From contig QHOV01000093.1 of NCBI GenBank assembly GCA_003218885.1, forward strand, positions 1-33,279: a stretch of 33,279 bases of DNA, written 5' to 3'. Every line of letters starts with the position of its first letter. The first letter of the stretch is position 1. This DNA comes from Verrucomicrobiota bacterium (lineage in GTDB: Bacteria > Verrucomicrobiota > Verrucomicrobiia > Chthoniobacterales > UBA10450). The notes beneath the pieces were generated by a model. It was not told the origin of the DNA. It made no database searches and was given only the letters and a program-made list of their open reading frames with translations. This document shows, in pieces, positions 6,496 through 31,184 of this stretch. Made by a program: the position numbers and the translations under genes.

Positions 6496-6504
6496 ACGTT
6501 TTAT

Positions 6505-6558: not shown

Positions 6559-7032
6559 TGTTGTCTCAATAGTTGCAATCGCAATTGCAGCCATCCCTTC
6601 GCCCCGCCCGACTGGACCGAGTTTTTCGTTGGTAGTGGCCTTCACGCTCACATTCGATTCGCTTGTGCCGATGGCAGTCGCAATTTTTTGGCGCATCGCG
6701 GGAACGTGGGGGGCGATTTTTGGCGTTTCGGCGATGAGTGTGGCATCGACATTGAGCACGCGCGCTCTTCTGTCGGTAAGCAATTCCGTCACCCGTTTCA
6801 AAATCTCGATGCTGCTGATGCCGCGAATCGACTCATCCGTATTTGGAAAATGCTGGCCAATGTCGCCTGCGCCGATCGCGCCGAGCAAGGCGTCCGCGAT
6901 CGCATGCGACAAAACATCCGCGTCCGAGTGTCCTTCCAGCCCGTGCGAGTGCGCGATCTCGACGCCGCCTAAAATCAGTTTTCGTCCCTTCGCGAGACGA
7001 TGCACATCATAGCCGATTCCACATCGAGTCAT
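6544..7032 (-). CDS. ispF: 2-C-methyl-D-erythritol 2,4-cyclodiphosphate synthase
   Basis: IspF forms methylerythritol 2,4-cyclodiphosphate in the MEP isoprenoid pathway, releasing CMP; it works as a trimer with an active-site metal. The 162-residue product begins CGIGYDVHRL, giving metal ligands Asp9 and His11, and has GLEGHSDADVLSHAIADALL with His43. GDIGQHFPNTD and the C-terminal VKATTNEKLGPVGRGEG are conserved. The final residues DSDD and the stop are encoded by the invading repeat copy 3. The ATG lies 18 bases after the IMPase stop, so the two are likely co-transcribed. dxs, an earlier enzyme of the same pathway, begins at 284. Confidence 0.96.
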   Translation of the reverse strand: MTRCGIGYDVHRLAKGRKLILGGVEIAHSHGLEGHSDADVLSHAIADALLGAIGAGDIGQHFPNTDESIRGISSIEILKRVTELLTDRRARVLNVDATLIAETPKIAPHVPAMRQKIATAIGTSESNVSVKATTNEKLGPVGRGEGMAAIAIATIETTDSDD

Positions 7033-7050
7033 GGTGGAAATTGTTTGTCG

Positions 7051-7797
7051 TCACAATTTGAGATCGATAACGCCATTGGAGGCGACGATGCTGTACTTAT
7101 CCTTCATGTCGTCGCGCGGACGAAGATCGACAGTTCCGCCGGCATTTTCAACCAGAAGCCAGCCCGCTGCGATGTCCCACAAACTGATTCCCTGTTCGAT
7201 ATAAGCGTCGAATCGTCCGCACGCGACATAAGCCATGTCGAGCGCAGCGCTGCCAAGGATCCGGCATTTGCGCACGCGATGAATCATTTCCTGGAGCAGC
7301 GGGAAATTCGCGTTAATCGTCTCCCCGGTCTTGGCGAGCCCAACCGAGATGACGGCTTCAGCCAGGTCCGCGCGATCGCTCACATGGACGGGGTGGCCAT
7401 TTAATTTCGGGACCTCACCCTTCTGTCCAGACCACATTTCCTCGCGAATTGGATCGTAGATGACGCCAATCATGATTTCGTTTTGAAGGCGTAGCGCAAT
7501 CGAGACACAAAAATGAGGTATGCCGTAGAAATAATTCACGGTGCCATCAAGTGGATCGACAATCCACTGATGCTCGGTCGATTGATCGCCCGCAACTCCT
7601 TCTTCGCCGTAAAGCGCGTGCTCGGGAAATTCTTCGAGAAGTAATTTGGTAATCAACTCCTGCGCCTGGATATCGATCTCGAGTTTCAGATCGTGCGCTG
7701 CGACCGCATTGACTCGCTGCTGCCGCGGGAAATTTTGGCGAAGCAACTTGCCCGCCCCGCGTGCGGCCTCTTCGGCCGTATCGAGGTAATGCTTCAT
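7051..7797 (-). CDS. inositol monophosphatase family phosphatase
   Basis: A 248-residue Mg-dependent sugar/inositol phosphatase of the SuhB/IMPase family. ALYGEEGVAG (Glu65-Glu66 region) and QWIVDPLDGTVNYFYGIPHF (Asp81, Asp84) make the metal site; SLWDIAAGWLLVENAGG gives the third Asp. All metal residues are present, so it should be active. Substrates in this family range from inositol 1-phosphate to other phosphomonoesters and cannot be decided from sequence. It is probably the first gene of an IMPase-ispF-cysS transcription unit. The 70 bp before its start include ACAAAGAACACAAAGTGCAC, again a repeat-like sequence; no clear promoter was identified. Confidence 0.93.
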   Translation of the reverse strand: MKHYLDTAEEAARGAGKLLRQNFPRQQRVNAVAAHDLKLEIDIQAQELITKLLLEEFPEHALYGEEGVAGDQSTEHQWIVDPLDGTVNYFYGIPHFCVSIALRLQNEIMIGVIYDPIREEMWSGQKGEVPKLNGHPVHVSDRADLAEAVISVGLAKTGETINANFPLLQEMIHRVRKCRILGSAALDMAYVACGRFDAYIEQGISLWDIAAGWLLVENAGGTVDLRPRDDMKDKYSIVASNGVIDLKL

Positions 7798-7870
7798 GAA
7801 TGATTACGTCGCACAAAGAACACAAAGTGCACAGCGGAAATGAAGGCGAAACCAAGCGCAAGCAACGTGG

Positions 7871-7987
7871 GTCATCCCGAGCGCAGCGAGGGATCTCTCA
7901 TAACTCCAGTGGTTACACTTAATGGAATTGCGCAATCGTACGCTTCGATTGTGAGATCCCTCGCCGTCTGTTGCGGCTCGGGATGAC
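7871..7987. repeat. 117-bp inverted-repeat element (GTCATCCCGAGC family)
   Basis: The left end GTCATCCCGAGCGCAGCGAG, followed by GGATCTCTCA, is nearly complementary to the right end, GATCCCTCGCC...GGCTCGGGATGAC. The arms are about 30-35 bases with a short AT-richer centre. The right arm carries a few extra bases (CGTCTGTTG). There is no open frame inside. It looks like a non-autonomous miniature element; similar GTCATCCCGAGC ends occur in many unrelated genomes as interspersed repeats (recalled knowledge, not searched). Confidence 0.8.
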
Positions 7988-7999
7988 AGAGCGCATGCG

Positions 8000-8035
8000 A
8001 AAAAAAACCGGGAGGAAAATAAATTCTCCTCCCGG
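8000..8035 (-). terminator. Rho-independent terminator of the lysine-rich micro-gene
   Basis: On the minus strand the sequence reads CCGGGAGGA, a 10-base AT-rich loop, then TCCTCCCGG, followed at once by eight T. The stem is nine GC-rich base pairs (8027-8035 with 8008-8016). A second smaller hairpin, CTCCGA/TCGGAG (8055-8072), lies between it and the micro-gene stop. This is the best terminator in the window and indicates a transcript arriving from higher coordinates. Confidence 0.88.
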
Positions 8036-8093
8036 GTTGAAGTTAGGAGTTGTGACTCCGAGGAAATTCGGAGCCGTTAATGAAGCGTCAGGC

Positions 8094-8147
8094 TTAATGC
8101 CTTTTTTTCTTCGCTGATTTTTTCTTTGCTGCTTTCTTTTTCGCCAT
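8094..8147 (-). CDS. 17-residue lysine-rich micro-protein
   Basis: A tiny frame encoding MAKKKAAKKKSAKKKRH: ten lysines and one arginine in 17 residues. Support for translation is good. GGGGGG lies nine bases before the ATG as a Shine-Dalgarno-like sequence in AAAGGGGGGAA. The frame is followed by a small hairpin and then a canonical Rho-independent terminator. The composition resembles the KAAKKK tails of bacterial histone H1-like proteins, so nucleic-acid binding is a reasonable guess. A decayed stub of a longer protein or a leader peptide remain possible. It stands directly downstream of coaB with 87 bp between; TTGACA at 8248-8253 (inside coaB) could be a -35 element, but no good -10 was found. 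Function unknown. Confidence 0.6.
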   Translation of the reverse strand: MAKKKAAKKKSAKKKRH

Positions 8148-8234
8148 CGACTAATTCCCCCCTTTCAATCCGCAACACGCGCGGAGATTCGTGAAGAGTT
8201 GGGAATGACTTCACTCAATTGCGTTCAGTAATCG

Positions 8235-8891
8235 TCACATTTTTTTTGTCAAACATTTTTGTTGGGAATTTTGCAAAATTTTTATGAGCTCCCGCGCGAT
8301 AATTGTTTTGGGCGCGCGCGAAATTTTCTGTCGTTCGCCGTTTTGAAAGAGAATCGTCACCTCATTCACGTCGCTTTCCATTGCCGAATTTGCGCCGCTC
8401 ACGTCGTTTGCGACCATGATGTCGCACTTTTTTTCGCGCAGTTTCTGATCGGCGTTTTCTTCCACGTCATTGGTTTCTGCGGCGAAACCAACGAGGAGAA
8501 ATCGTCGATCTTGGCGGCGGCCTAACGAATGGAGAATGTCGCGCGTGGGAACCAAGTCGAGTGAAAATTTTGCGCAGCGCTTCTTAATTTTTGTCCGCGA
8601 AGCTTTTGTCGGCTTGTAATCCGCCACGGCGGCGCACAGGACGCATACGTCGCAGTTGTCTGCATGCCGGCGGACGGAAGCGAACATTTCGTCGCTGGTG
8701 GAAACGGAAACCAATTTGGCGCCGCCCGGCGGCTCGATGTTCACGGGGCCCGAAATCAAGATAACATCGTGGCCGGCATCGAGCGCCGCTTCGGCGATGG
8801 CGTAGCCCATTTTCCCTGATGAGCGATTCGAAATGTAACGAACCGGATCAATCGGCTCGCGCGTCGGCCCGGCCGTGACGAGAAATCTCAC
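8235..8891 (-). CDS. coaB: phosphopantothenate--cysteine ligase (CoaB, stand-alone)
   Basis: CoaB joins 4'-phosphopantothenate to cysteine using CTP in coenzyme A synthesis. The 218-residue product starts VRFLVTAGPTREPIDPVRYI, then NRSSGKMGYAIAEAALDAGH, the classic CoaB opening with its substrate-binding Asn. VCVLCAAVADYKP and KIKK supply the AAVAD and lysine motifs. In most bacteria this is the C-terminal half of the bifunctional CoaBC (Dfp) protein; here it is a separate gene. The GTG start (8889-8891) overlaps the coaC TGA as GTGA, so the two halves are translationally coupled. The frame remains open upstream of the GTG but that reading is the shadow of coaC. A sequencing frameshift in a fused gene is less likely because the junction has a proper coupled start. 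Confidence 0.9.
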   Translation of the reverse strand: MRFLVTAGPTREPIDPVRYISNRSSGKMGYAIAEAALDAGHDVILISGPVNIEPPGGAKLVSVSTSDEMFASVRRHADNCDVCVLCAAVADYKPTKASRTKIKKRCAKFSLDLVPTRDILHSLGRRQDRRFLLVGFAAETNDVEENADQKLREKKCDIMVANDVSGANSAMESDVNEVTILFQNGERQKISRAPKTIIARELIKILQNSQQKCLTKKM

Positions 8892-9511
8892 GCGATCAAA
8901 TTTTCCTGACGCGCGAGCAGAAACTCGGCACGGAAAGCGATGTCGTTCACTTTCCAAAGCCGGCCAATGCCTTCGTAACCGCACGCGAGCATTCCTTCTT
9001 CCGGCCCGATAAATTCGACGCCGCGCGCTTTGAGTTTTTCGACGTTCTCCTGCGTGGCGTGATGTTGCCACATTTTTCCATTCATGGCGGGCGCGATCAG
9101 AATCGGCGCGCGCGTGGCGAGCGCAATGGCAGCGAGCGGATGACCCGCCAGACCGTGCGCAAGTTCGGCGATGATGTGCGCGGTGGCGGGCGCGATCAGA
9201 AGCAGGTTCGCGCGATCCGCAAGGTCGATGTGACCTGGTCGCCAATTTTCCTTTTCATCGTAGAAGCTGGTCGTGACCGGATTTTTGGAAAGCGTTTGCA
9301 ACGTCAGCGGCGAGATGAATTCGGTCGCGTCGTGCGTCAAGATCACAAAAACTTCGTGGCCCTGTTTGACAAGCAGACTCGCCAGCTCAGCAGATTTATA
9401 CGCTGCGATCGATCCTGTAACGCCGAGCACGACGGATTTTTTTCCAGCTGGAATACGCACCACTCTTCGGGCGCTGGTTTTTTCAAGCCTGCGCTTGGAA
9501 TTTTTTTCCAT
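8888..9511 (-). CDS. coaC: phosphopantothenoylcysteine decarboxylase (CoaC, stand-alone)
   Basis: Flavoprotein that decarboxylates phosphopantothenoylcysteine to 4'-phosphopantetheine. The 207 residues include VVLGVTGSIAAYKSAELASL (FMN-binding start), ANLLLIAPATAHIIAELAHG, the PAMNGKMW motif (PxMNxxMW) and LACGYEGIGRL, the substrate flap with its catalytic Cys. The N-terminal 25 residues are basic and lineage-specific. It ends in TGA overlapping the coaB GTG. It follows gmk by 38 bp, giving the order yicC-gmk-coaC-coaB, a housekeeping cluster of a type often seen around gmk and coaBC in bacteria. Confidence 0.93.
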   Translation of the reverse strand: MEKNSKRRLEKTSARRVVRIPAGKKSVVLGVTGSIAAYKSAELASLLVKQGHEVFVILTHDATEFISPLTLQTLSKNPVTTSFYDEKENWRPGHIDLADRANLLLIAPATAHIIAELAHGLAGHPLAAIALATRAPILIAPAMNGKMWQHHATQENVEKLKARGVEFIGPEEGMLACGYEGIGRLWKVNDIAFRAEFLLARQENLIA

Positions 9512-9549
9512 CTTAAATCGACAAGACTAAACGGGAATAGTTTTGCGAG

Positions 9550-10161
9550 TCATTTCGGCCTCAACCGCCGGCTCAAATAACTTTCTGCAGCCATGATGTG
9601 GCGGATTTTTTCCAAGTCCCCTTCGATTGACCCGCTGACAATAGTGTAGCGGTAATCGCGCCATAATTCCATTTCTCGCTTGGCCGTGGCGAGACGCGAC
9701 TCAATCTGCTGCGTTGTCTCCGTTCCGCGCTTCGTCAAGCGGCGACGCAATTCTTCCAGATTGGGCGGCATAATAAAAACATCCGCCAGAGCCTGGCGAA
9801 TAATCGGATCACCGCAGTTGCGGATGGTGGCGGCGCCCTGTATGTCGATGTCGAGCAAGACATCCGTGCCGTTGTTCAAATTGTTCAGCACCGGCTCGCG
9901 CAGTGTGCCGTAATAATCTCCGTGCACCCGCGCGTGCTCGAGAAAATCACCGGCTTCGACTCGCGCGCGAAAATCTGCATTCGATAGAAACTGATAGTTT
10001 TCTCCGTCGATTTCACCGGCGCGCGGCGCCCGAGTGGTGCAGGAGACGGAATAAAAAAGATTGGAAGTTTTCCGGAGCGCTTCAACCAGGGTTGTCTTGC
10101 CCGCGCCCGATGGTGCAGAGATGACGAAGAGAATTCCGTGGCGGCTGAACTGTTTACTCAA
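9550..10161 (-). CDS. gmk: guanylate kinase
   Basis: Gmk phosphorylates GMP to GDP with ATP. GILFVISAPSGAGKTTLVEA holds the P-loop; SVSCTTRAPRAGEIDGENY and DFLEHARVHGDYYG are the GMP-binding signatures; DVLLDIDIQGAATIR and a C-terminal helix follow. An in-frame ATG at 10251 would extend far into yicC. The TTG at 10159-10161, five bases before the yicC TAA ends (TTGAGTAA), gives 203 residues and places the P-loop where Gmk usually has it. GGGAG lies 13 bases before that TTG. The start is therefore an inference; the identification is firm. The rpoZ gene that often follows gmk is absent. Confidence 0.93.
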   Translation of the reverse strand: MSKQFSRHGILFVISAPSGAGKTTLVEALRKTSNLFYSVSCTTRAPRAGEIDGENYQFLSNADFRARVEAGDFLEHARVHGDYYGTLREPVLNNLNNGTDVLLDIDIQGAATIRNCGDPIIRQALADVFIMPPNLEELRRRLTKRGTETTQQIESRLATAKREMELWRDYRYTIVSGSIEGDLEKIRHIMAAESYLSRRLRPK

Positions 10162-11029
10162 GGTTTTGAACTTGCTCCCGGACCTTCTCGAGTTCGGCTT
10201 TGCAGGCGATGACGCGTTGCGAAATGGCGGCGTCATTCGCTTTTGCGCCAAGTGTGTTGAGCTCGCGAAAAATTTCCTGGATGATGAATTCCAGTGTGCG
10301 CCCGACCGGTTCTTTGCTGCGCAAATGATGAGCGAACTGAGCGAGGTGACTGTCGAGGCGTGTCAACTCCTCCGACACGTCCGACCGGTCGGCAAAGAAG
10401 GAGATTTCCTTGAGCACACGTTCGTCATCGCTGGCGATCGGCAGCCCGGCTTTTTGAATACGGTCGAGCAGCGCAGCGCGATATCGTTTCACGACGTCGG
10501 GATGAAGCGCGCGAACCTCCTTGAGTTTTTTCCGGATCGCCTTGAGCCGATGAATTAAATCCTTGGCCAGATGTTTGCCTTCGCGCTCGCGCATTTTGAC
10601 TAAATCGGCGAGCGCGGCACGCAGCGCCCGTTCGATTGCCGGCCATGCTTCTTCCGCCTTCACGGCCTCTTCCGGGAACCGCATCACACCGGGCGCTTGC
10701 AAAATCGTGCTGATAGTGATCTCGCCCGGCGCGTTTAACTCCTTTTGCAACGCGCGCATCGCTTCGTGATACGAGCGGGCAAGTTCCGTGTTTAGCGCCA
10801 GGTTTCGCGCACCGTCTGCGCCAGTATGAAGGGTGATGGTGGCATTGGTCCGGCCGCGCGAAATATTTTCGTTGATGGTCTGACGAACACGCGGTTCGAG
10901 TTCGACCAGGTCGCGCGGCAAATTGATCACGACGTCGCTCTGCTTCCGGTTCACAGAATTCAGTTCGACGCTAAATTTCGTCCCGGCGTGATCGGTCTCG
11001 GCGCGACCGTATCCAGTCATGCTCCGCAT
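10154..11029 (-). CDS. yicC: YicC-family endoribonuclease
   Basis: YicC proteins are conserved, and E. coli YicC has been described as an endoribonuclease affecting small-RNA turnover. The 291-residue product begins MRSMTGYGRAE, the invariant family N-terminus, followed by VELNSVNRKQSDVVINLP. It ends with the DUF1732-type region VSEELTRLDSHLAQFAHHL and GRTLEFIIQEIFRELNTLGA. An upstream ATG at 11041 (MHRD before MRSM) is possible; the family start favours 11029. The gene overlaps gmk, the neighbour it commonly keeps. No clear Shine-Dalgarno sequence is seen. Confidence 0.93.
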   Translation of the reverse strand: MRSMTGYGRAETDHAGTKFSVELNSVNRKQSDVVINLPRDLVELEPRVRQTINENISRGRTNATITLHTGADGARNLALNTELARSYHEAMRALQKELNAPGEITISTILQAPGVMRFPEEAVKAEEAWPAIERALRAALADLVKMREREGKHLAKDLIHRLKAIRKKLKEVRALHPDVVKRYRAALLDRIQKAGLPIASDDERVLKEISFFADRSDVSEELTRLDSHLAQFAHHLRSKEPVGRTLEFIIQEIFRELNTLGAKANDAAISQRVIACKAELEKVREQVQNLE

Positions 11030-11113
11030 ATCTCGATGCAAAAGCTTATCGCAGAGAAATGCTCAACGATCAACGTTCATCGACGATCGTGCAGAGCAGT
11101 AGTTTTCCAGACG

Positions 11114-12127
11114 TCACCGTAACCCGACGCCAAAAGCCTTCGAGGGCGTTCCTGGGGAGCTGTTAACAAGGCTCTGCGCTGCACGCCGATGCGGGGAAGG
11201 CATTGCAATATGATCGATGGATTCAAACCACCGCTGCTCCGGGGCGATTCGGTTTGGTGCGGGGCGGCGATACACAGCAAGCGTGACCCGGTGATGCGTG
11301 AACGGAAATTTGGATATGTGTAGCGGCAGGCCAGACTCGCTTGTTTCCAGCGGCGGCAAAATCCACAAGCCGCGCCAGCGACTAGAGGATTGTTCGAGCA
11401 GAATCTTGCCCTCACGAACCACAAATGCATGCTTTTCGACGAGTCGCGTTGTACGCAAGCGAGCTTTCCTGACCGGAAGCGTTTCCGGATTTTTTGCCTG
11501 GCAGAATTTTTTGACGGGGCAGATTCCGCATCGCGGTCGGCGAGGCCGACAAATAAGCGCGCCAAGATCTGTGAGCGCAGAGTTGTAAATGTGCGCGGAG
11601 CGCTCTGGAACAAGCGTGGCCGCATGCTCCCAAAGTTTTTCCCGGCTGCCCCTTCGATCGATCGGGCGGCGAAAATTAAGAATGCGCACCAACACGCGCG
11701 CAGTGTTGGCTTCGATAATCGGAACTGCTTGATCAAAGGCGAAGTTGGCAATGGCGTGTCCTGTATATTTCCCGATTCCAGGGAGTCGCTGCATTTGATC
11801 GATCGATCGCGGAAAGCGTCCGCGAAATCGATTTACGACGGCCCTTGCGGTGGCGTGAAGATTTCGCGCACGAGCGTAATAGCCGAGTCCTTGCCAGGCG
11901 CGCAGAATATCGTTTTCGGAAGCGCGATTTAGTGCAGCGAAATCAGGAAATTGCCTGAGCCACTCATGGTAATAAGGAATCACGGTGGCAACCTGAGTTT
12001 GCTGGAGCATGACCTCAGACACGAGGATGGCGTAGGGATCGCGGGTCCGGCGCCAGGGCAAGTCACGTCCGTGTTTGCGATACCACGTAGTCAATGCGCG
12101 GCGGAATTCAGCTTTTGGAAAGGCCAC
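11114..12127 (-). CDS. mutY: A/G-specific adenine glycosylase, MutY-like
   Basis: MutY removes adenine opposite 8-oxoguanine. With the GTG start at 12127 the product has 337 residues. It shows YAILVSEVMLQQTQVATVIP (catalytic Glu38), WQGLGYYARARNL, the helix-hairpin-helix LPGIGKYTGHAIANFAF, and the iron-sulphur motif CRPRRPRCGICPVKKFC (Cys193, 200, 203, 209; CX6CX2CX5C). At the place of the catalytic Asp of MutY (LDGN in E. coli) it reads PIIEANTARVL, so Asp is Glu139. The C-terminal NUDIX-like part (from KHAFVVREGKILLEQ) is present. An upstream GTG at 12148 lies inside the CACAGAT repeat, so it was not used. Whether this is MutY proper or a MutY-like glycosylase cannot be decided by eye. Confidence 0.88.
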   Translation of the reverse strand: MAFPKAEFRRALTTWYRKHGRDLPWRRTRDPYAILVSEVMLQQTQVATVIPYYHEWLRQFPDFAALNRASENDILRAWQGLGYYARARNLHATARAVVNRFRGRFPRSIDQMQRLPGIGKYTGHAIANFAFDQAVPIIEANTARVLVRILNFRRPIDRRGSREKLWEHAATLVPERSAHIYNSALTDLGALICRPRRPRCGICPVKKFCQAKNPETLPVRKARLRTTRLVEKHAFVVREGKILLEQSSSRWRGLWILPPLETSESGLPLHISKFPFTHHRVTLAVYRRPAPNRIAPEQRWFESIDHIAMPSPHRRAAQSLVNSSPGTPSKAFGVGLR

Positions 12128-12132
12128 AGATA

Positions 12133-12222
12133 AGCCACGGATTAACACAGATGAATGATAATGTCTCGCCAGCTAATTCGGCATGCATGCAAACTGTGTT
12201 TCATCTGTGTTAATCTGTGGCT
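12133..12222. repeat. CACAGAT-type inverted repeat between mutY and rnhC
   Basis: Two 23-base arms at 12133-12155 (AGCCACGGATTAACACAGAT...) and 12200-12222 (...ATCTGTGTTAATCTGTGGCT) are complementary at 22 of 23 positions, with a 44-base spacer. They fill the divergent region between mutY and the RNase HIII gene and must overlap both genes' promoters or leaders. The same word family recurs at the ribE stop (TTAACCACGGATGG). Confidence 0.85.
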
Positions 12223-12224
12223 CA

Positions 12225-13193
12225 ATGAATTCATATACCCATCCGCTGACGAAAGAGCAGGCAACAAAGCTTCGCGCGTTGCTGGAAGAGGTCGGATTCG
12301 AATTTTCGCCGAAGGAGTGGACGATTTTCTTCGCGCAGAAAAACAAGTTGAGCGTAGCGGTTTATGAGAAGGGGCCGAAGGTGCTCGTGCAAGGTCGCGG
12401 CGTGGAAGAGTTCGTCCAGTTCGAGCTGGAACCGAAGATTCTAGGTGAGGCGAAACTGGGCTACGAAGAAGTGCACTCACCGGAAATGTTTCAGCCGCAT
12501 TTCGGGGTGGACGAGAGCGGGAAAGGGGATTTTTTCGGGCCGCTTGTGATTGCGGGCGTCTATGTCGATCCCGGAATTGCGCGCAAATTTCTCGATGCTG
12601 GCGTGGTGGACAGCAAAAGGATCGGTTCAGACGCGCGCATTCGCGCCCTGGCGGATATGATTCGGGAAAGTTCGTTAGGTCTGGTGGAAACAGTTCTGAT
12701 CGGCCCGGCCAAATACAACGAGCTTTACGAGAAGTTTGGCAATCTTAACCGGCTGCTTGGGTGGGGGCACGCGCGCGTGATCGAGAATTTGCTGGCGAGA
12801 AAGCCGGGATGCCCGCGGTCGTTATCGGACCAGTTCGCGGACGCGGGGGTGATCCGAGCATCATTACTAAAGCACGGGCGCAAGATTGCCATCGAACAGC
12901 GTCCGAGAGCCGAATCGGACATTGCGGTCGCGGCGGCTTCGATCCTTGCGCGCGAGGCGTTCATCAACTGGCTGGACCGCAAAAGCAAAGAGCTCGGCCT
13001 GCAATTGCAGCGCGGAGTATCGTCGAGCGTAAAGGAGAGCGCCAGAAAGCTGGTGGAAATGAACGGGCCAGGCGCATTGCGTCAGGTGGCAAAAGTGCAT
13101 TTTCGCACCGCGCACGAGACCGCGCCGGACTACTATCGCGCCCCGCCGCCTCGCGAGAATTGGGCAGGCCCACGTGATTCGTTGAAGCGTTAA
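12225..13193 (+). CDS. rnhC: ribonuclease HIII
   Basis: RNase HIII cleaves the RNA strand of RNA-DNA hybrids. The 322-residue protein has the N-terminal TBP-like substrate-binding domain (about residues 8-80, including KNKLSVAVYEKGPKVLVQGR) and the catalytic domain starting FGVDESGKGDFFGPLVIAGV. The DESGKGD form (Asp96, Glu97) is specific for HIII rather than HII. VVDSKRI and ESDIAVAAASILAREAF carry the other acidic residues. The ATG at 12225 directly follows the inverted repeat; the frame upstream reads repeat sequence. The last residues DSLKR and the TAA stop fall within a TTCAACG-type hairpin element (13172-13205). Confidence 0.93.
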   Translation: MNSYTHPLTKEQATKLRALLEEVGFEFSPKEWTIFFAQKNKLSVAVYEKGPKVLVQGRGVEEFVQFELEPKILGEAKLGYEEVHSPEMFQPHFGVDESGKGDFFGPLVIAGVYVDPGIARKFLDAGVVDSKRIGSDARIRALADMIRESSLGLVETVLIGPAKYNELYEKFGNLNRLLGWGHARVIENLLARKPGCPRSLSDQFADAGVIRASLLKHGRKIAIEQRPRAESDIAVAAASILAREAFINWLDRKSKELGLQLQRGVSSSVKESARKLVEMNGPGALRQVAKVHFRTAHETAPDYYRAPPPRENWAGPRDSLKR

Positions 13194-13205
13194 AAACATT
13201 CAACG
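13172..13205. repeat. CGTTGAA/TTCAACG hairpin at the rnhC stop
   Basis: ACGTGATTCGTTGAAGCG at 13172-13189 continues to a TTCAACG at 13199-13205. CGTTGAA (13180-13186) and TTCAACG are perfectly complementary; the rnhC TAA stop (13191-13193) is in the loop. It resembles the element at 27263-27320 that overlaps the aroD end. Further CAACC-type relics follow to about 13245. Confidence 0.7.
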
Positions 13206-13365
13206 AGGATCCATCTCTTCAACCGTTTAAGGCTTCAACCATTTAGCTTGGCAAAGCGAGTTGCGTTTGGTGTTCTTCTCGAACACCTTAGACCGTTAAA
13301 AATTTGCCGTTTTATGCTTCATTTAGCCACCGTTAGAAGCCCATGGAACGATTATTAAGATAGAT

Positions 13366-13722
13366 ATGTCAAAGTTAACCAAGCGCGACATCGTCGTCTC
13401 CATCAGCAACCAAACCGGCATGGTCCAGCATCAAGTCTTCGATGTGGTGCAGCGCACGCTGGATAAAATCACCGATAGCCTGGCTAACAATATCCCTGTT
13501 GAATTGCGCAATTTTGGCGTTTTCCAGCCGCGTCTGACAAAGCCGCGAGTTGGCCGAAACCCGAATCAACCAGGCAGCAGTTTTGTGATTCCGCCGCGCG
13601 CCACAGTGAAATTTAAGGCTGGCAAAATCATGCGTCAGCGTGTGGAGAAACTTTCCCGGGAATTAAAAGAAGCGGCAGAGCGCAAGACCAAAGCAGAAGC
13701 AGGTGGGCAAGACGGCGAATAG
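13366..13722 (+). CDS. HU/IHF-family DNA-binding protein
   Basis: Small nucleoid protein of the HU/IHF family, 118 residues. It begins LTKRDIVVSISNQTGMVQHQ, then VELRNFGVFQPRL and the beta-arm region RVGRNPNQPGSSFVIPPRAT with VKFKAGK, the DNA-binding signature with the conserved Pro. A charged tail of about 25 residues (KEAAERKTKAEAGGQDGE) extends beyond the usual 90-95. It is monocistronic, 172 bp after rnhC and facing a histidine kinase gene across 37 bp. Whether it is HU or IHF-like cannot be told. No obvious Shine-Dalgarno sequence is seen (AAGATAGAT precedes the ATG). Confidence 0.93.
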   Translation: MSKLTKRDIVVSISNQTGMVQHQVFDVVQRTLDKITDSLANNIPVELRNFGVFQPRLTKPRVGRNPNQPGSSFVIPPRATVKFKAGKIMRQRVEKLSRELKEAAERKTKAEAGGQDGE

Positions 13723-13759
13723 GGAAACGTGACGCGGACAATCTTGTCTGCCTCACGAC

Positions 13760-16240
13760 TCACGAGAGCAAGTTCTGAATCGTTTTCTCCAGGCGCTCAA
13801 AATTGATCGGCTTGGTGAGATGTTCAGAAAAGCCTGCCTCCCTGGCTTGGTTTACGTCCTGTTCGCTGCCAAAGCCGCTGAGCGCAATTGCGGGCAAATC
13901 CTTCTTGAGACGTACTTGACGCATTAATTCATAGCCGCTGCGATCCGGCAATCCGATGTCGCTGATGAGCAGGTCGAAATCCTGTGTGCGCATTTTCTCC
14001 ACGGCCTGTTCAGCAGAATGGGCTACCGTAATTTCGTAGCCGTGGCGTTCCAGCATCCTTTTCATTCCGATGCAAGTGTCGTAATGGTCATCCACGAGCA
14101 GGACGCGCCGATGCTTTAAAACGGTTCCTTCTGCTTCTCGGTCTGCGGGTTGATCTTCCCCGTCGCCGTCGCCACCGATCGGAGTTAACACCGTGTTTAG
14201 TTCCACTGAAAAGGTGGCGCCCTGGTCTTTCCCGGGACTTTGCGCCCGGATCTTTCCGCCGTGCGCGTCGATCAACGCCTTCGAAATGGCCAGGCCAAGC
14301 CCGAGGCCTCCAAAGCGGCGCGTGATTTCAGCCTGGCCCTGCTCAAATGCGTTAAAGATCTTGTCGATTTTTTCCTGTTCGATGCCGATGCCGGTGTCGA
14401 TGACGCGGGCCTCAATTTTATCCGGCGCCGGGTTAAGAGTCTCGATAGTGATTCGGCCTCTTTCAGGAGTAAATTTCACGCTGTTCTTGATCAGATTCCA
14501 AAAGACCTGTTGCAATCGCGCCGGATCGCCCTCCACATGGGTGTGAGCAGCGCGAAAGTGAAATTCCACTTCCAGATTCTTCGCTTCGACTTCTTTTCGA
14601 CATATCTCGTAAGCGCGCTGCAGGATTTGGTGCACGCAAATAGTCTCAAAGCTTAATTGCAGTTTGCCTTTCGAGATACGAGTCACGTCGAGTAAATCGT
14701 CAATTAACCGTGCCTCCAGCTCAACGTTGCGGCGGACGACCTCGAGCGCTTCTTTGACTGGCTGGGAATCTGGCACTTCGGCTTCCAGCTCCCCTACCAT
14801 CGCAATTACCGGCGTGAGGGGGCTGCGCAGCTCGTGCGACAAAAGTGCCAGGAATTGATCCTTGGCAGCATCTGCGGCAATCAACTCCTGGCGCAATGTG
14901 ACGTCGCGCGTCTTGTCTTCTACCAGATAAAGCACGCCTTGGATGGTTTCCTGCGCGCCTTGTAGCCGGAGCAGGTTAATATCCAAAAAATGCGTCATAC
15001 CCGTCTTGTCTTTCAACGGCTGCTCGGTTAACTGAAATGGTGTTCCAAAGGTAAGCACTCTCTCAATCGCTCCGGGGGGCGCAATCTTCACATCGTCATA
15101 GGTGATTTCCGTGATGTCGCGGCGGCTGGCAGGTAGGTCTCCAAAGCGTTCGGCCATGCGCGCAAAAGCATCGTTGGCGTGAAGAAAGCGGCGAGAAGTT
15201 GGATCGACAAAAGCGATTCCGCTGGGCATGTTCGCCAGCATTTTCTCGTTGAAGACAACTTCACGCTCCAGCCGTTGCTTGGATTCCATCTGGCGCTGAT
15301 AAAACCTGCTGCCCAGCCAAGCGAAGACCGCCGTAAGGGCGACCAGCCAGGCTGTCAGCAACGTCATCCGCCCCAGCAGATCGTGAACCGGTTTGTAAGC
15401 CAGCGCTTTCGGCTGTTCCACGACTGCCACCCAACCGGTGTTCTCGATAGGACTGAATGAATAGAGGTTGCCGTGCTCTTCGAAATGTCCGGTTTTATTT
15501 TGGCGGATTTCCTTGATCAACACGCCACCCTCCGGGGAAGTCACACTGGGGTTCGGCTTAAAATCATTCGCGAAAAGGGCGACGCCGTTTTGATCGAGAA
15601 CTTCGAACAGAAACCGGTCGGAAAATTCGATCGTGGACAAACGCCGGCCAATTCTTTCCACGAGGACCGAGTCACCGACGTAGCCGAGAATTCTTCGGTC
15701 GGGCGCGCGCACAGCTGCGACGATATTGGTGACCAGCCGGTTATCCGTCAGCCGGGAATGAACTGGCGAGACCACGGCTTCGTTGGATTCCGCCGCTTGT
15801 TCGCGCCAGTAACTGGACCCAAAATCCTTTCCGACCATCTCGGGCGCCGTCGGGATCGATGCAATTAAGGCACCGTCAGGTGCGGTTAAAAACATTCCGT
15901 CGATATTGGGGTGCGAATAAAATGCCGAGTTGAGCCATGGCTGAGCCACGGGCGTCGGATTTGCCGCGCTCAGAACTCTCGTAACTTCGGGGAGCGTCTG
16001 ATAATAGTTAATGATGGCACTACTGCGGCTGAGATCGTGGCCGACCAGATGGCCAACCAATTGGATCAGAGTTTGCCTGTCGCGTAGGATTCGGGATTCC
16101 AGGGTATCGCGCAGGATGGTGTAGGAAACAATTAACGTCAGGACGGACGGGATCCATCCTGCCAGAAGAATGGGAAAGATGATCGTGAAACGCTCGAAAC
16201 GGTCGCGTCTTCGTTTCGTTATTGTATCTCCCAGCTGCAT
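13760..16240 (-). CDS. membrane hybrid sensor histidine kinase (Cache-PAS-HisKA-HATPase-REC)
   Basis: An 826-residue two-component protein. Membrane segment 1 is at about residues 18-42 and segment 2 at 291-313; the extracytoplasmic part between (with FLTAPDGALIASIP and RILGYVGDSVLV) looks like a double Cache sensor. A PAS-like domain follows (330-445). HisKA carries FLALLSHELRSPLTPVIAMV with phospho-His469; HATPase shows WNLIKNSVKF, VIDTGIGI and FGGLGLGLAISKAL. The C-terminal receiver has VLLVDDHYD and DLLISDIGLPDRSG with phospho-Asp761, and HLTKPIN. The ATG at 16240 is preceded by AAAGGCAGG; the TTG at 16261 is less likely. The ligand is unknown and no separate output regulator is adjacent. 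It is divergent from the glycosyltransferase gene across 273 bp in which no further gene was recognised. Confidence 0.93.
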   Translation of the reverse strand: MQLGDTITKRRRDRFERFTIIFPILLAGWIPSVLTLIVSYTILRDTLESRILRDRQTLIQLVGHLVGHDLSRSSAIINYYQTLPEVTRVLSAANPTPVAQPWLNSAFYSHPNIDGMFLTAPDGALIASIPTAPEMVGKDFGSSYWREQAAESNEAVVSPVHSRLTDNRLVTNIVAAVRAPDRRILGYVGDSVLVERIGRRLSTIEFSDRFLFEVLDQNGVALFANDFKPNPSVTSPEGGVLIKEIRQNKTGHFEEHGNLYSFSPIENTGWVAVVEQPKALAYKPVHDLLGRMTLLTAWLVALTAVFAWLGSRFYQRQMESKQRLEREVVFNEKMLANMPSGIAFVDPTSRRFLHANDAFARMAERFGDLPASRRDITEITYDDVKIAPPGAIERVLTFGTPFQLTEQPLKDKTGMTHFLDINLLRLQGAQETIQGVLYLVEDKTRDVTLRQELIAADAAKDQFLALLSHELRSPLTPVIAMVGELEAEVPDSQPVKEALEVVRRNVELEARLIDDLLDVTRISKGKLQLSFETICVHQILQRAYEICRKEVEAKNLEVEFHFRAAHTHVEGDPARLQQVFWNLIKNSVKFTPERGRITIETLNPAPDKIEARVIDTGIGIEQEKIDKIFNAFEQGQAEITRRFGGLGLGLAISKALIDAHGGKIRAQSPGKDQGATFSVELNTVLTPIGGDGDGEDQPADREAEGTVLKHRRVLLVDDHYDTCIGMKRMLERHGYEITVAHSAEQAVEKMRTQDFDLLISDIGLPDRSGYELMRQVRLKKDLPAIALSGFGSEQDVNQAREAGFSEHLTKPINFERLEKTIQNLLS

Positions 16241-16513
16241 GCCTGCCTTTTGCGAAAACAAATTGGCCTATCACGGTTACCTTGCTGACCCTCTCAGGCA
16301 AGGGCGAATGTCGGGAGACGTTGAACGGCTTTAGGCAGCGTATTTCTTTTAAACAGCAGTAGGCTGGCCAGCGACCAAAGAGATTGCCCAAACCGATTAC
16401 TCCCGCAATTACGAAGGTCGATTGGAGACTACTGCGTATCAACACAATATGACCGCGGTTTTCACAGGCAAACATGCGATTTTTGGATTGACGCAACCGC
16501 TGGAAACGGCATC

Positions 16514-18064
16514 ATGACGCCCTTACTGGCTCAACGATTGGTAGCCATAGAAACTCCTATGCAAGGAAGTGTCGGACATATCATTTGGACGGTTTGCTAC
16601 CTGAGTGTGCTCATCGGGCTTTCCGCTTATGGCGTCCATCGCTACTTCATCATTTACCTCTACCTGAAAAACCGGAAGCGGGCGCCGGCGCCGGCCCATT
16701 ATTTTGAACAACTGCCGAAGGTGACGATGCAGTTGCCGATCTTCAACGAGATGTATGTGGCCGAGCGGTTGCTCCGTTCGGTGAGCGAGCTGGATTATCC
16801 GCGAGAGCTTTTGCAAATTCAGGTGCTGGATGATTCAACCGATGAGACCCGCGAGATCACCGCCTCCTGCGCGGAGGAACTGCGTCAGCGTGGGTTCAAT
16901 GTTCAGCGTATTCATCGGGTTGATCGCACCGGTTTCAAAGCCGGCGCACTGGCGGTAGGGCTTGAAGCTGCAGAGGGCGAGTTCGTTTGTATTCTGGACG
17001 CCGATTTTGTCCCGCAAAGAGACTTACTAAAACGCACGATCCATTTCTTCACCGATCCTAAAGTGGGAATGATCCAGACTCGCTGGGGCCATTTGAACCG
17101 TGGGTATTCATTGCTCACGCGCATGCAGGCGATTTTTTTGGATGGGCATCTTTTGCTCGAGCAAACCGCACGCAGTCGCAGCGGCCGTTTTTTTAATTTC
17201 AATGGAACCGCCGGTCTCTGGCGGCGTTCCTGCATCGAACAAAGTGGGGGCTGGCAATATGACACGCTGTGCGAGGACCTCGACCTGAGCTATCGCGCCC
17301 AGCTGGCAGGCTGGAAATTCATTTATCTTTCAGATGTGGTCACTCCTGCGGAGTTGCCGGTGGACATGAATGGTTTCAAGTCTCAGCAGCATCGCTGGAC
17401 CAAGGGTTCGGTCCAAACGTGCAAGAAATTGTTGCCCACGATCTGGCGCAGCCAGCTCCCGTTTCCAATCAAGCTCGAGGCCACGGGGCATTTGATGTCC
17501 AACTTCGCTTACCTTCTCCTTGCCTTTCTGTGTGTTCTTTTACATCCCTCGACGGGAGGGCCTGAGGGCGGCTGGGTGCGCACGGTGCTTATCGACATTC
17601 CCATCTTTCTTGCAGCGTCGGCATCAGTCGCCGCTTTCTATATTTGCGCCCAGCGCGAGTTGTATCCACGGACGTGGATGAGAGAGATTCTTTTTCTGCC
17701 ATGCCTGCTTGCCTTGGGAATTGGTCTCTCGCTCAATAACGCGCGAGCGGTGCTGGAAGCGCTCATCAATCACAAATCCGATTTCACGCGTACGCCGAAG
17801 TACGGCATTGAACGCAAATCGCAGCACTGGCGCACCTGCAAGTACCGGCCGCTCAAGTCAACACTTCCCCTGCTGGAACTGGCCTTCGCCATCTATTTCA
17901 GTTACTTCGTGGTGTTCGCCATTGTGCACGGCCAGTTCCTCTCAGTGCCATTCCTGCTGATGTTCCAGGCCGGTTTCCTTTACGTTTGCCTTTCTTCATT
18001 CGGCAGTCGCTGGTCAAAAATCAATTTTGACAGCTCACGCACAAGCGCCGCAATTCCCGCGTGA
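16514..18064 (+). CDS. family 2 glycosyltransferase, processive membrane type
   Basis: A 516-residue membrane glycosyltransferase of the cellulose-synthase/glucomannan-synthase-like group. An N-terminal membrane segment (about 22-50) precedes the GT-A domain: MQLPIFNE, VLDDSTD (106-110), LDADFVP (161-167), TLCEDLDLSYR (251-261) and QQHRWTKGS (291-299). These are the D, DxD, ED and Q(x)xRW motifs of processive GT2 enzymes. Four or five membrane segments follow from about residue 325. It probably polymerises a beta-linked glycan across the inner membrane; the sugar is unknown. GGAAAC lies just upstream of the ATG. The stop overlaps a GTG of the next frame, and an L,D-transpeptidase gene follows, so an envelope operon is likely. 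Confidence 0.9.
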   Translation: MTPLLAQRLVAIETPMQGSVGHIIWTVCYLSVLIGLSAYGVHRYFIIYLYLKNRKRAPAPAHYFEQLPKVTMQLPIFNEMYVAERLLRSVSELDYPRELLQIQVLDDSTDETREITASCAEELRQRGFNVQRIHRVDRTGFKAGALAVGLEAAEGEFVCILDADFVPQRDLLKRTIHFFTDPKVGMIQTRWGHLNRGYSLLTRMQAIFLDGHLLLEQTARSRSGRFFNFNGTAGLWRRSCIEQSGGWQYDTLCEDLDLSYRAQLAGWKFIYLSDVVTPAELPVDMNGFKSQQHRWTKGSVQTCKKLLPTIWRSQLPFPIKLEATGHLMSNFAYLLLAFLCVLLHPSTGGPEGGWVRTVLIDIPIFLAASASVAAFYICAQRELYPRTWMREILFLPCLLALGIGLSLNNARAVLEALINHKSDFTRTPKYGIERKSQHWRTCKYRPLKSTLPLLELAFAIYFSYFVVFAIVHGQFLSVPFLLMFQAGFLYVCLSSFGSRWSKINFDSSRTSAAIPA

Positions 18065-18096
18065 CAAAACCCGAATTATCGGGTAAGAGGTTGCGC

Positions 18097-18828
18097 ATGT
18101 TTCGGCCGTTGGCTGTAATTTTTAGTCTGGTTTCGATCGCGCCTGCATTTTCTGCCACACAGCTCACACAGCTCGATACGTCCCATCGTGTGGTAATCAG
18201 TATCCGCGATCAGAAGCTGATGCTTCTCGAGAATGGCGGGAGAGTGGCAATTTATCCGGTCTCGACGTCCAAGTACGGAGTCGGTGATTTTCGAGGAAGA
18301 ATGACCACACCGGTCGGTTACCTGACGGTCGCGAAAAAGATCGGCGATAACGCGCCAGTCGGCGCCGTCTTTCACAATCGGCGGTGGACCGGCGAAATTC
18401 TCCAGCCCAATGCTCCTGGGCGGGATCCGGTGACGACGCGGATCATTTGGCTAAGCGGACTTGAAGCCCAAAACGCGCAGGCCTTTCACCGCTGCATCTA
18501 CATCCACGGCACGCCGGAAGAAAAGACGATCGGCCGGCCAGCCAGCTATGGTTGCATCAGAATGAAAGCCGCCGACGTCGCGCTGCTCTATAATCAAGTT
18601 CCGCTGGGGGCGCTGGTGCAAATCACTCCCGACCGTTTGCCCAAAGTGCCAAAGGCGCGGCCGACGCCGGCCAGTACTACGTTGGTCGTGCAGAACGAAA
18701 AACCGAACAACCAGCAGCCTGAACCAACATCTGCTTCAGGCACGCTCAGCACCGAGCAAATGCGAATGGGTGGAGCGCTCGCTGCCGAGCGAGAAAAAGC
18801 GAAGCTCGCATTGGGCAAACGCTTGTAA
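18097..18828 (+). CDS. L,D-transpeptidase (YkuD domain), secreted
   Basis: Envelope enzyme that forms peptidoglycan cross-links or attaches partners at diaminopimelate, acting in the periplasm. With the ATG at 18097 the 243 residues start with a signal peptide (MFRPLAVIFSLVSIAPAFSA, predicted cut near residue 20). The YkuD domain follows, ending IYIHGTPEEKTIGRP and ASYGCIRM, giving His137, Ser150, Cys153 and Arg155 of the catalytic motif. The C-terminal 55 residues are Pro/Thr/Gln-rich and then helical. The GTG at 18061 overlaps the upstream stop, but AAGAGG six bases before 18097 and the signal peptide decide for the ATG. It is probably co-transcribed with the glycosyltransferase. Confidence 0.92.
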   Translation: MFRPLAVIFSLVSIAPAFSATQLTQLDTSHRVVISIRDQKLMLLENGGRVAIYPVSTSKYGVGDFRGRMTTPVGYLTVAKKIGDNAPVGAVFHNRRWTGEILQPNAPGRDPVTTRIIWLSGLEAQNAQAFHRCIYIHGTPEEKTIGRPASYGCIRMKAADVALLYNQVPLGALVQITPDRLPKVPKARPTPASTTLVVQNEKPNNQQPEPTSASGTLSTEQMRMGGALAAEREKAKLALGKRL

Positions 18829-26590: not shown

Positions 26591-26655
26591 GCTTGCAGTG
26601 GATTCAGCATAATTCCGCGGCGCTTTGCATCGCGACGTCGCTATAAAACCCAAGT

Positions 26656-26681
26656 GCGTCGCGCAGCGCGCTGTCCCTACC
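26656..26681 (-). repeat. GGTAGGG half-element at the LON gene stop
   Basis: On the minus strand the sequence reads GGTAGGGACAGCGCGCTGCG then CGACGC; it resembles the left half of the element at 26306 and can form a short GCGC-rich hairpin. Its first G is the last base of the TAG stop of the LON-domain gene. Confidence 0.6.
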
Positions 26682-27209
26682 TATGCAGCGGCGTTTCCGA
26701 TTTCGTCGCGCAAATACGTGATGAGGAAACGGAGGCGTTGATTGAGAGAACGTTCTTCGAGCACGCGTTGCCGTCGCAACGGATCGTTCACGAATGTCCA
26801 AGCCATAAGGTTTTGCGCCGAGCGCTTCGGTCTCGACGGTAGTTGCGTCGTGCGACTCGACGATCTCGATCCTGGCGATCGGAAACGGAGTTTCCTGTTC
26901 GAAACTGGTGAAGCGCACACGTTGCAGACCTTGCAGGATCAAATTCGACGTGCCATCGCTGCGCCCGACACAGGCGCGAATCAACCCGACGGTAGCAAGA
27001 TGAAAGAAATCCTCCGGGGCATGCCAATCCGGGCAACTGGGTTTGATGAGAGTCACGCAAAACATGCGATGATGACGAAGCGCGTGTTCCAACATGTTGC
27101 GATACCGCGGCTCGAAAATGTACAGCGGGAGCAACGCATGCGGAAAGACCACCGCGCCCGGCAGCGGCATGACCGGCAGTTGCTTTGGCAAAGTTACTGG
27201 CGAAGGCAT
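26681..27209 (-). pseudogene. LON substrate-binding-domain protein, frameshifted
   Basis: Resembles the stand-alone N-terminal domain of Lon protease, a small family of unclear function. The first 130 or so residues are good: LPVMPLPGAVVFPHALLPLY, IFEPRYRNMLEHAL, FHLATVGLIRACVGRSDGT and LILQGLQRVRF. Near 26810-26813 (run of four A on the coding strand) the frame shifts; the adjacent frame continues LMAWTFVNDPLRRQRVLEER and SLNQRLRFLITYLRDEIGN to a TAG at 26681. Removing one A would give one protein of about 175 residues. This may be a sequencing error, a real inactivation or, least likely, programmed frameshifting. It lies downstream of ribE-aroD on the same strand. Confidence 0.75.
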
Positions 27210-27320: not shown

Positions 27321-27938
27321 CGCGGAGCGACTTCAAGCGCGCGAAGTTGTTTGAGCGAGAGTTGCCCTTCGATGTCGGTTTCTGCGCCCACGGATCCATA
27401 AACCAGCGCAGAGCCCACGCGCGCGAGCAAGACTCGCGACGAGCAGACGCGCGAGTTGCACGGGTGTGTCGGTGCGTGTCGCGACCTTGAAAATATCTGC
27501 GCCATGGGTTTTGGCAGCGCGGGCTTTGGCGCGCAACACGCGTAAGGGCGGCGTCGATTTAAAATTATGGAATGAAATGATGCGCCGCACTTTTTTCTGC
27601 TTTGCTAATGTGAGCAACGAACGCAAAGCAGATGCCGAGCGCAGTTCAACATCGACATAGTCGGCATGCGGTAAAAATCGAGTCAATACATCGCGCCGTT
27701 GCCGCAGTGACAATTTGTTCCCGCCTCCTTCCTGCGGGTGTCGCGCGGTGATGATGAGCGGCGCGCGTAACCTCGGCAGTTTATTTTCCAATTGATCGAC
27801 GATGCCTGCGAGACGATCCAGGCGCAGCTCGAATAAATCCGGCGGATTGCACATCCGCACGGCACGACCCAAGTCCGCGCGGGATGCGACCACGCCAATG
27901 ACACGCGGACGCTTCGTGGCCGAGTTGCGCACCGTCAT
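27281..27938 (-). pseudogene. aroD: 3-dehydroquinate dehydratase type I, internally deleted and frameshifted
   Basis: Type I enzyme of the shikimate pathway. The first frame shows VIGVVASRADL, LFELRLDRLAG, LIITARHPQEGG, VDVELRS, RRIISFHNFKSTPP (catalytic His) and GADIFKVATRTDTPVQLARL (Schiff-base Lys). It then runs into nonsense. The next frame resumes SRVLLARVGSALVYGSVGAE and TDIEGQLSLKQLRALEV, the normal family C-terminus. The join falls near 27420-27440 and lacks about 20 residues (the usual MGxGxxGxxSR strand with a substrate-binding Arg). So roughly 60 bases appear deleted, out of frame. The ATG is three bases after the ribE stop. As it stands it would not make an active enzyme. Confidence 0.8.
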
Positions 27939-28655: not shown

Positions 28656-29722
28656 TCACTTTCGTTCCGCCACCATCAAGTTGGCTTCCTTCCAGTTCCA
28701 GCGATAGCCGAATCCGAACTCGAGCGGCGGCGGATTGCTTCGCGCGAAGAGCTCTTGCAGTTTGGGCTGAAAATGTTGTTTGAAGAGCTCGATGGGGCCG
28801 AGATAGGTGCCGAAGAGGCGGAGACTCCACTTGTTTGGGTCGAAATAAGCCAGGGGAATTCCAGAGTCGTCCTGCACAACGCGGTTGCTATGTTCGAGAA
28901 TGAAATTGCGGATCGTCGCGAAACCGTCTTCGAACATCAAATACGACGATGATTTGAGAAAACTCGAGCCGGGGCCTAATCGCTGGCAGAATTTCAAGAA
29001 GCCGGGTGTCGTTTTAATTCCACCGTCAGAAATATCTGCGGTGAAATAATACAGTGTTTGTGAGCTGCCCGACTGATTGTCGGTGTAATTGATCCGGACG
29101 CCGGAAATACTGCCACCTTTTCTGCGATGAAAACGTAAAGAATCGGCAGCACACCGTTGAGGTTCTGCTGTAGTAGATCGATTTTCATGTCTTTGGTGAT
29201 GAAGTAGGTCGTTTCGAGCGAGGACTTCATCGCGTTTTCCAAGTTTCCAAGCGCGCCGGCCAGATTCGCGATCCGCAATGGATCAGGAGGCGGCCCCATC
29301 GATTCCTTTCCGCAAAGGATGTACACCGAAGCGCGTGGAAAAAATTGATCTACGTAGAGAAAATCGGGCCCGCTGAACATGTAAAACGCTACAGGGATCG
29401 GTTGCAGCAATTCCGGAACATACGTCTCCTGCCAGGCGTGCAGTTTCTGGAGCTGTCGGAGATTGAGCTTTGAGAATTCTTTCTCAAAAAATGCGGCATG
29501 TCCCTGCCATGCCGGATCGCGCGTGAGCGGTGCGAGCGGGGAATTTTCCGGCACTGGCATTCCAGCAAGAAAACGCGCGACATCGTTTGGTCCGGCAGCG
29601 ACCGGCATTGCACGAGGTGCAACTTCGGGACTCTCCTGAGCACAAATCCTCAGTTCATCGACACTGGCCAGGGTTAACAACAGGATTGCGGCAACTGTTT
29701 TTCCGAACGAATTCCTAGTCAT
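28656..29722 (-). pseudogene. secreted protein of unknown family, frameshifted
   Basis: From the ATG at 29722 the frame begins with a signal peptide (MTRNSFGKTVAAILLLTLAS) and continues PVPENSPLAPLTRDPAWQGH, VAFYMFSGPDFLYVDQFFPR and LPILYVFIAE. At 29118-29121 (four A on the coding strand) it goes out of frame; the adjacent frame gives GGSISGVRINYTDNQSGSSQ, LYYFTADISDGGIKTTPGFL, SLRLFGTYLGPIELFKQHF and a TGA at 28656. One extra A would yield a single protein of about 355 residues. I do not recognise the family. The start overlaps the permease stop as ATGA, so both were one operon. The shift coincides with the edge of a 199-bp segment that is duplicated in the permease gene. Confidence 0.7.
28925..29123. 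repeat. 199-bp direct repeat, copy A (in secreted-protein gene)
   Basis: Identical base for base to 29985-30183, 1060 bases away, in the same orientation. Here it encodes, in frame with what follows, the native stretch GGSISGVRINYTD...SSSYLMFED of the secreted protein, so this is probably the parental location. Its upper edge coincides with the frameshift in that gene. Confidence 0.95.
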
Positions 29723-31068
29723 ACAGGACGAGCTTTTCCTGCGCAAAAGTAGAGGAGCAAACCCAAGAGCGCTGTTCCCACGCCAGCGAGCGACTCCGCG
29801 GTATGCCACCGCACCAAATAAACGATCATCCAAATCGTGATTATCGAGAAAAGAACAGGCGGGAGCGGATAGAGCCAAACTCGATACGGGCGCGTGATTT
29901 CCGGGTGTGTGAAGCGGAGCACGATTACTCCGAGCACAGCAAACAGCGAGCAAATCAACAAACTGAATTGAGTATAGCGGACGACGTCTTCGAACATCAA
30001 ATACGACGATGATTTGAGAAAACTCGAGCCGGGGCCTAATCGCTGGCAGAATTTCAAGAAGCCGGGTGTCGTTTTAATTCCACCGTCAGAAATATCTGCG
30101 GTGAAATAATACAGTGTTTGTGAGCTGCCCGACTGATTGTCGGTGTAATTGATCCGGACGCCGGAAATACTGCCACCTTTTCTTGATCGAGGAAATCAAT
30201 CCGAGGCAAATCCCCGCTCCTGCGGCGCGCCCGCCGGCTGCTCCGAAAATGTGTTTACCTGCGATCAATGCCACTTCGAGTTGACCCTTCAATTCTCCAA
30301 GAGGCGTGGTTGCGAGAAAGACGGCATTAAGCAGCACATAGATCACAATCACAAGACCCGTTCCGACGAGCAAAGAGCGCGGCACAGTTTTCTTCGGTTG
30401 CTTAATTTCGCCGCTGATATAGGCGGCCGCGTTCCAACCAGAATAGGAGTACATCACATAAACGAGCGCGATCGCGAATGGCCCGCTGAGGATCGCCATT
30501 GTATCGCCGGGCGCGGGAAAAAGGCTGATGGGTTGTTTGGCTGGAACAAAAAACCCAGCGGCGATCAGCGTGCCAATTAAGAGCAATTTCACGAGGGTAG
30601 AAACATTCTGAAACGCGCTGCCGACTTGCAGATTGCCAAGGTGAAACACCGCTACCATCCAAACGACCACAAACGACAGGAGGAACGGCGAACCCATTCC
30701 AAAGACGCCGGTAAAATATTTTCCGAAGGCCATGGCTGCGAGCGCCACAGGAGCGGCGAATCCGACCGTGGCAGAAACGAAACCCGCCATGAATCCAACC
30801 GCGGGATGATAAATCCGCGACAGAAAATGATATTCGCCGCCAGAGCGCGGCAGCTCGGCGCTGAGTTCGCCGTAACAGAGGGCCCCACAAAGCGCGGCGA
30901 TTCCGCCGACGATCCACAGCATGAGCAGTGCGAACCCCGATTGAATCTCGGCTACCTGGAAACCGAGGCTCGTGAAGAAGGACGCTCAGCGATGGCAGTC
31001 ATCGTTGAATCGACAATCCCGAAATTATCTGGCTTGGCGAATTGTTTCGGCGTGGCATTCAACTTCAT
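29719..31068 (-). pseudogene. amino-acid permease (APC superfamily), disrupted
   Basis: Membrane transporter fragments on one strand. The start reads MKLNATPKQFAKPDNFGIVD and STMTAIA, then about eight foreign bases (30980-30987) replace the conserved GSGIF region. The next frame continues FFTSLGFQVAEIQSGFALLM, GELSAELPRSGGEYHFLSRI, VYVMYSYSGWNAAAYISGEI and GICLGLISSI. At 30183 it enters a 199-bp segment copied from the neighbouring gene, leaving frame. Native permease resumes FEDVVRYTQFSLLICSLFAV and HPEITRPYRVWLYPLPPVLF to the TGA at 29719. The parts total roughly 380 residues against the usual 450-470, so about 70 residues in the middle are replaced. It would not work as written. The ACT-domain gene is divergent, suggesting an amino-acid link. 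Confidence 0.82.
29985..30183. repeat. 199-bp direct repeat, copy B (inside permease gene)
   Basis: Exact copy of 28925-29123. Here it sits between permease fragments and codes for no permease sequence in any frame. Flanking joins are at AGAAAAGG on one side and TTCGAAGACG on the other; the latter fits both the native permease (FEDVV) and the donor gene (FEDGF), so microhomology lies at the junction. Confidence 0.95.
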
Positions 31069-31184
31069 GATTGTCTCGTCTCTGCGGGAGATTCGTTGCT
31101 TGCTTAAAATCAGCGCATCCAGCAGCCGCCGGATGATTTTCCTGAGTTGTCAGAAGCCGTTCCCGGCATCACTTTGAAAACGGC

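What the first reader, a model, noticed from the sequence alone, without database searches (positions are those of the whole stretch)
29985..30183. Exact 199-bp copy of a neighbouring gene replaces the middle of an amino-acid permease
29985-30183 equals 28925-29123 at every base read. The segment is native to the secreted-protein gene, where its reading frame continues downstream; in the permease it takes the place of about 70 residues and breaks the frame. The permease-side junction TTCGAAGACG fits both genes, and both copies end at AGAAAAGG, exactly where the donor gene itself loses frame. This suggests template switching or non-homologous gene conversion between adjacent genes, or a misassembly. 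Zero divergence means it is recent or artificial.
Basis: partly seen in the sequence, partly recalled or inferred. Interest (0 to 1): 0.72.

Follow-up and report, generated by a model that had tools for sequence, protein, structure and literature searches.

The report
Assembly error duplicating 199 bases
A 199-base piece of one gene appears a second time inside the neighbouring transporter gene, but comparison with many related bacteria shows it sits in a badly assembled stretch of a draft genome and is almost certainly a joining error made by software rather than biology.

Summary
29985-30183 equals 28925-29123 at all 199 bases, and no third copy exists in the assembly. The segment is native to the secreted-protein gene; in the amino-acid permease it stands in for about 165 bp that relatives have. 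Two things were missed. First, copy 1 is also bounded by a false joint: the donor gene lacks about 79 bp exactly there, at 29123/29124. Second, the surrounding 4.2 kb carries three more clean block losses (101 bp at 26810, 68 bp at 27439, 85 bp at 30978), all frame-shifting, in genes that relatives keep whole. The rest of the window has no comparable lesion. Two different upstream blocks jump to the same base of the same piece, as expected if a contig began there; biology would need two events sharing one breakpoint. Same-genus draft genomes show similar block losses, two of which remove the P-loop of the only guanylate kinase found. The project behind most named relatives trimmed reads to at most 200 bp and ran IDBA-UD up to k=200, so 199 = k-1 is suggestive. 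Verdict: local misassembly, confidence 0.93.

The parts
28925..29123 (-). Copy 1 of the 199-bp segment, native to the secreted-protein (donor) gene; low-coordinate flank native, high-coordinate end is a false joint
   Evidence: Alignment with relatives
29985..30183 (-). Copy 2 of the same 199 bp, inside the permease gene in place of about 165 bp of native permease
29123..29124 (-). Joint in the donor gene where about 79 bp are missing; same landing base (AGAAAAGG) as at 30183/30184
29985..29994 (-). TTCGAAGACG, 10 bp that fit both the donor segment and the native permease (as seen in G007)
30977..30978 (-). Joint near the permease N-terminus where 85 bp are missing relative to relatives
27439..27440 (-). 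Joint in aroD (type I 3-dehydroquinate dehydratase) where 68 bp are missing
26810..26811 (-). Joint in a LON substrate-binding-domain gene where 101 bp are missing
29719..31070 (-). Amino-acid permease gene (PF13520 in the intact relative), broken at 29984/29985, 30183/30184 and 30977/30978
28656..29720 (-). Secreted-protein (donor) gene, no Pfam or NCBIfam match in the intact relative; broken at 29123/29124

Best explanation
Local misassembly in a short-read metagenome-assembled genome. Between about 26.8 and 31.0 kb the window consists of correct blocks of roughly 0.6-1.7 kb; native stretches of 68-165 bp between them were not recovered, and the blocks were butted together. In gene direction the true order is permease-N block, missing 165 bp, permease-C/donor-N block, missing 79 bp, donor-C block. 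The donor-C block begins at AGAAAAGG. Both upstream blocks were joined to that same end: the donor-N block by skipping 79 bp, and the permease-N block by skipping everything in between. On the second path the sequence returns to the permease through a 10-bp match, TTCGAAGACG, which leaves 199 bp of the donor-C block inside the permease. Shown: the repeat, the missing stretches, the shared landing base and the extra lesions. Inferred: that they arose in assembly or scaffold correction, because of thin or tangled coverage.
For: Relatives keep both genes whole and adjacent. Five lesions lie in 4.2 kb, none of the four simple losses a multiple of 3, and no lesion against all relatives lies elsewhere in the window; chance of such clustering about 0.001. 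Two joints land on the same base with 0-1 bp homology. Missing pieces are nowhere else in the genome. Sister draft genomes have single-genome block losses of 106-152 bp, including P-loop loss in the only guanylate kinase found in G007 and G008. The project behind most named relatives trimmed reads to at most 200 bp and used IDBA-UD with maxk 200 (PMC6784897); 199 = k-1. Chen et al. 2020 (PMC7111523) suspect that local assembly errors are especially common in IDBA-UD assemblies and describe artificial repetition of identical sequence.
Against: No reads could be mapped. The source project of this genome is inferred from its relatives, not stated. Exact 199-bp overlaps between sampled contigs were not found. 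The return joint with 10 bp of shared sequence is shorter than any k used and is explained only loosely.
Confidence: 0.93

Rival explanations
1. Real replication template switching: the polymerase jumped from the permease forward into the neighbouring gene, copied 199 nt, jumped back at TTCGAAGACG, and jumped forward again, leaving a recent pair of pseudogenes.
For: 10 bp of shared sequence at the return joint; segment is local and in the same orientation.
Against: Needs two forward jumps onto the same base with 0-1 bp of homology and leaves the 101-, 68- and 85-bp losses in neighbouring genes unexplained.
Confidence: 0.04
2. Non-homologous or homologous gene conversion between the two neighbouring genes.
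For: Zero divergence between copies.
Against: Gene conversion copies along homologous tracts; the two genes share no more than about 10 bp at one edge. The source copy itself has a defect at the same boundary.
Confidence: 0.01
3. Chimeric library molecules (PCR or ligation artefacts) that became the only coverage in a thinly covered region, faithfully assembled.
For: Short shared sequence at the return joint; joints with little homology.
Against: Would need several independent chimeras within 4.2 kb; an assembly cause explains all joints at once.
Confidence: 0.02

Closest known systems
Local assembly errors in IDBA-UD metagenome assemblies (Chen et al. 2020, PMC7111523)
   Same: Locally wrong sequence in otherwise good scaffolds, gene-breaking joints, and in one described class an identical sequence of hundreds of bp repeated artificially.
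   Different: Here the repeat is not tandem: the two copies are 1060 bp apart, and the repeat goes together with missing native stretches. Read support could not be checked.
Replication template switching / microhomology-mediated templated insertion
   Same: Short shared sequence at one joint and an insert copied from nearby.
   Different: Two jumps land on one base without homology, and unrelated block losses lie in neighbouring genes.

Membership tests
Local misassembly of a short-read MAG | Assembled sequence departs from the arrangement conserved in relatives | tested here: met
Local misassembly of a short-read MAG | No perfect read support across the joints | not testable with these tools
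   Raw reads are not held
Local misassembly of a short-read MAG | Further errors of the same kind nearby or in assemblies of the same sort | tested here: met
   Three more block losses in 4.2 kb; single-genome block losses in G007, G008, G010
Local misassembly of a short-read MAG | Exact k-1 overlaps between contig ends of the same assembly | tested here: inconclusive
   Shared stretches between sampled contigs were 79-160 bp, not 199; 79 of 217 contigs sampled
Template-switch insertion | Microhomology at the jumps | tested here: inconclusive
   10 bp at one of three joints, 0-1 bp at the two others
Template-switch insertion | Source copy left intact | tested here: not met
   Source gene lacks about 79 bp at the same boundary
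Gene conversion | Homology between donor and recipient around the tract | tested here: not met
   No similarity beyond about 10 bp at one edge

The most novel reading that the evidence does not exclude
A genuine recent templated insertion of a neighbouring gene's segment into the permease, with two replication jumps onto one fragile site and several associated small deletions, in an uncultured soil Verrucomicrobium.
Probability: 0.04. Interest if true: 0.4.

Novelty: not a real feature. Interest (0 to 1): 0.08.

Why it matters
As biology it most likely does not exist. As a caution it is useful: draft genomes of this genus contain stretches where pieces of about 60-165 bp are silently dropped, and here one exact piece is duplicated, giving false pseudogenes and false losses of essential genes. 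An exact short-range repeat search plus comparison with relatives exposes such places.

Tried and rejected
The 56-bp repeat of contig C195 (L162) was looked at as a possible second case; part of the stretch has a 92% relative in G014 and nothing marked it as an artefact. The apparent 68-96 bp loss at 20829 was rejected as a lesion, because the window's state is shared by G010, G013, G019 and G026. Exact k-1 overlaps between contigs were sought and not found. No strain close over the whole locus was found among 35 genomes of the genus. Structure prediction was not used: it would not bear on the question.

Full report
OBSERVATION. The window holds one exact direct repeat of 199 bp, 28925-29123 and 29985-30183, and the assembly of 2.30 Mb in 217 contigs has no third copy. 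In 79 other contigs of the genome (789 kb) no other exact within-contig direct repeat of 60 bp or more exists.

WHAT THE LOCUS SHOULD LOOK LIKE. The two genes lie next to each other on the minus strand. In relatives they are an amino-acid permease of about 465 aa (PF13520, E 4e-53) followed by a conserved protein of about 430 aa without a Pfam or NCBIfam family. The locus is found in 30 of the 34 other genomes of the genus searched, mostly as long open frames. Named relatives are uncultured Verrucomicrobia, mostly 'AV' genomes with sample names such as 14_0929_05_30cm.

WHAT IS WRONG IN THE WINDOW. Alignment with relatives shows, in gene direction: (1) 85 bp are missing near the permease N-terminus at 30978/30977; (2) the permease runs normally to 30184, then jumps to the 199-bp segment and returns to permease at 29984, with about 165 bp of native permease absent; (3) the donor gene runs normally to 29124, then lacks about 79 bp and resumes with copy 1 at 29123. 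The low-coordinate flank of copy 1 is native. So the segment belongs to the donor gene, but both of its copies are joined at the same base (AGAAAAGG) to sequence that does not natively precede it.

MORE LESIONS. Comparison of the window with twenty stretches of relatives adds a 68-bp loss at 27439 in aroD and a 101-bp loss at 26810 in a LON-domain gene, each of the same size against five relatives. None of the four simple losses is a multiple of three. Elsewhere in the window no lesion stands against all relatives; the one at 20829 is shared with four of them. Five random lesions would fall within 4.2 kb with probability about 0.001. The blocks between lesions are 628, 1683, 861 and 794 bp.

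WHY ASSEMBLY. The missing permease and donor pieces are nowhere else in the genome. Two different upstream blocks joined to the same base of the same piece is what one expects if a contig began there; as biology it needs two breakpoints on one base with 0-1 bp of homology. Other genomes of the genus show block losses one at a time: G008 lacks about 106, 152 and 128 bp and G007 108 bp at places where the others are whole. In G008 and G007 two of these remove the P-loop of the only guanylate kinase found by the family model; that guanylate kinase is essential and needs this loop is established knowledge, so these are assembly faults. In the window's own genome the only type I dehydroquinase found ends early at the 68-bp loss. 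The project behind most named relatives trimmed reads to at most 200 bp, assembled with IDBA-UD from k=30 to k=200, and then corrected scaffolding errors (PMC6784897). An exact repeat of 199 = k-1, or about one read length, is suggestive. It is not proof: the origin of this very genome is not stated, and no exact 199-bp overlaps were seen between sampled contigs. A contig of G018 (AV72) 95% identical to window 6372-18376 makes a common site likely. Chen et al. [quoted passage not shown]

RIVALS. Template switching could use the 10-bp match TTCGAAGACG for the return jump but not for the two forward jumps, and does not explain the other three losses. Gene conversion lacks homology. Chimeric library molecules remain possible for single joints but not for the whole pattern.

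SHOWN AND INFERRED. Shown: the repeat, the missing stretches, the common landing base, the clustering, and the same class of fault in sister assemblies. Inferred: that coverage was thin or tangled here and that contig joining or scaffold correction made the duplicate. Not tested: read support.

VERDICT. Real in the file, almost certainly not in the organism. Low interest.

Noticed in passing
window 26604-27209 and 27333-27938: A LON-domain gene and aroD look truncated only because 101 and 68 bp are missing against all relatives compared.
   Followed up: yes
window 4931-5067: An element of about 137 bp recurs at 80-87% identity at another place of this genome (C13:710-846) and in many genomes of the genus; no Rfam family matches it at the gathering score. 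A dispersed repeat.
   Followed up: no
L185 near 6145 (G008) and L183 near 6514 (G007): The only guanylate kinase found in each of these two assemblies lacks its P-loop because of a 152-bp and a 108-bp block loss at nearly the same place.
   Followed up: partly
L177 (G018:C110, 1-12057): G018 holds a contig 95% identical to window 6372-18376 and also other contigs (C80, C46, C190) homologous to parts of the same stretch at about 78-84%, which suggests a mixed bin.
   Followed up: no
G000 contigs C11, C14, C31, C191, C193, C194, C198, C199: These short contigs read as all N (withheld or masked) in the stretches taken.
   Followed up: no
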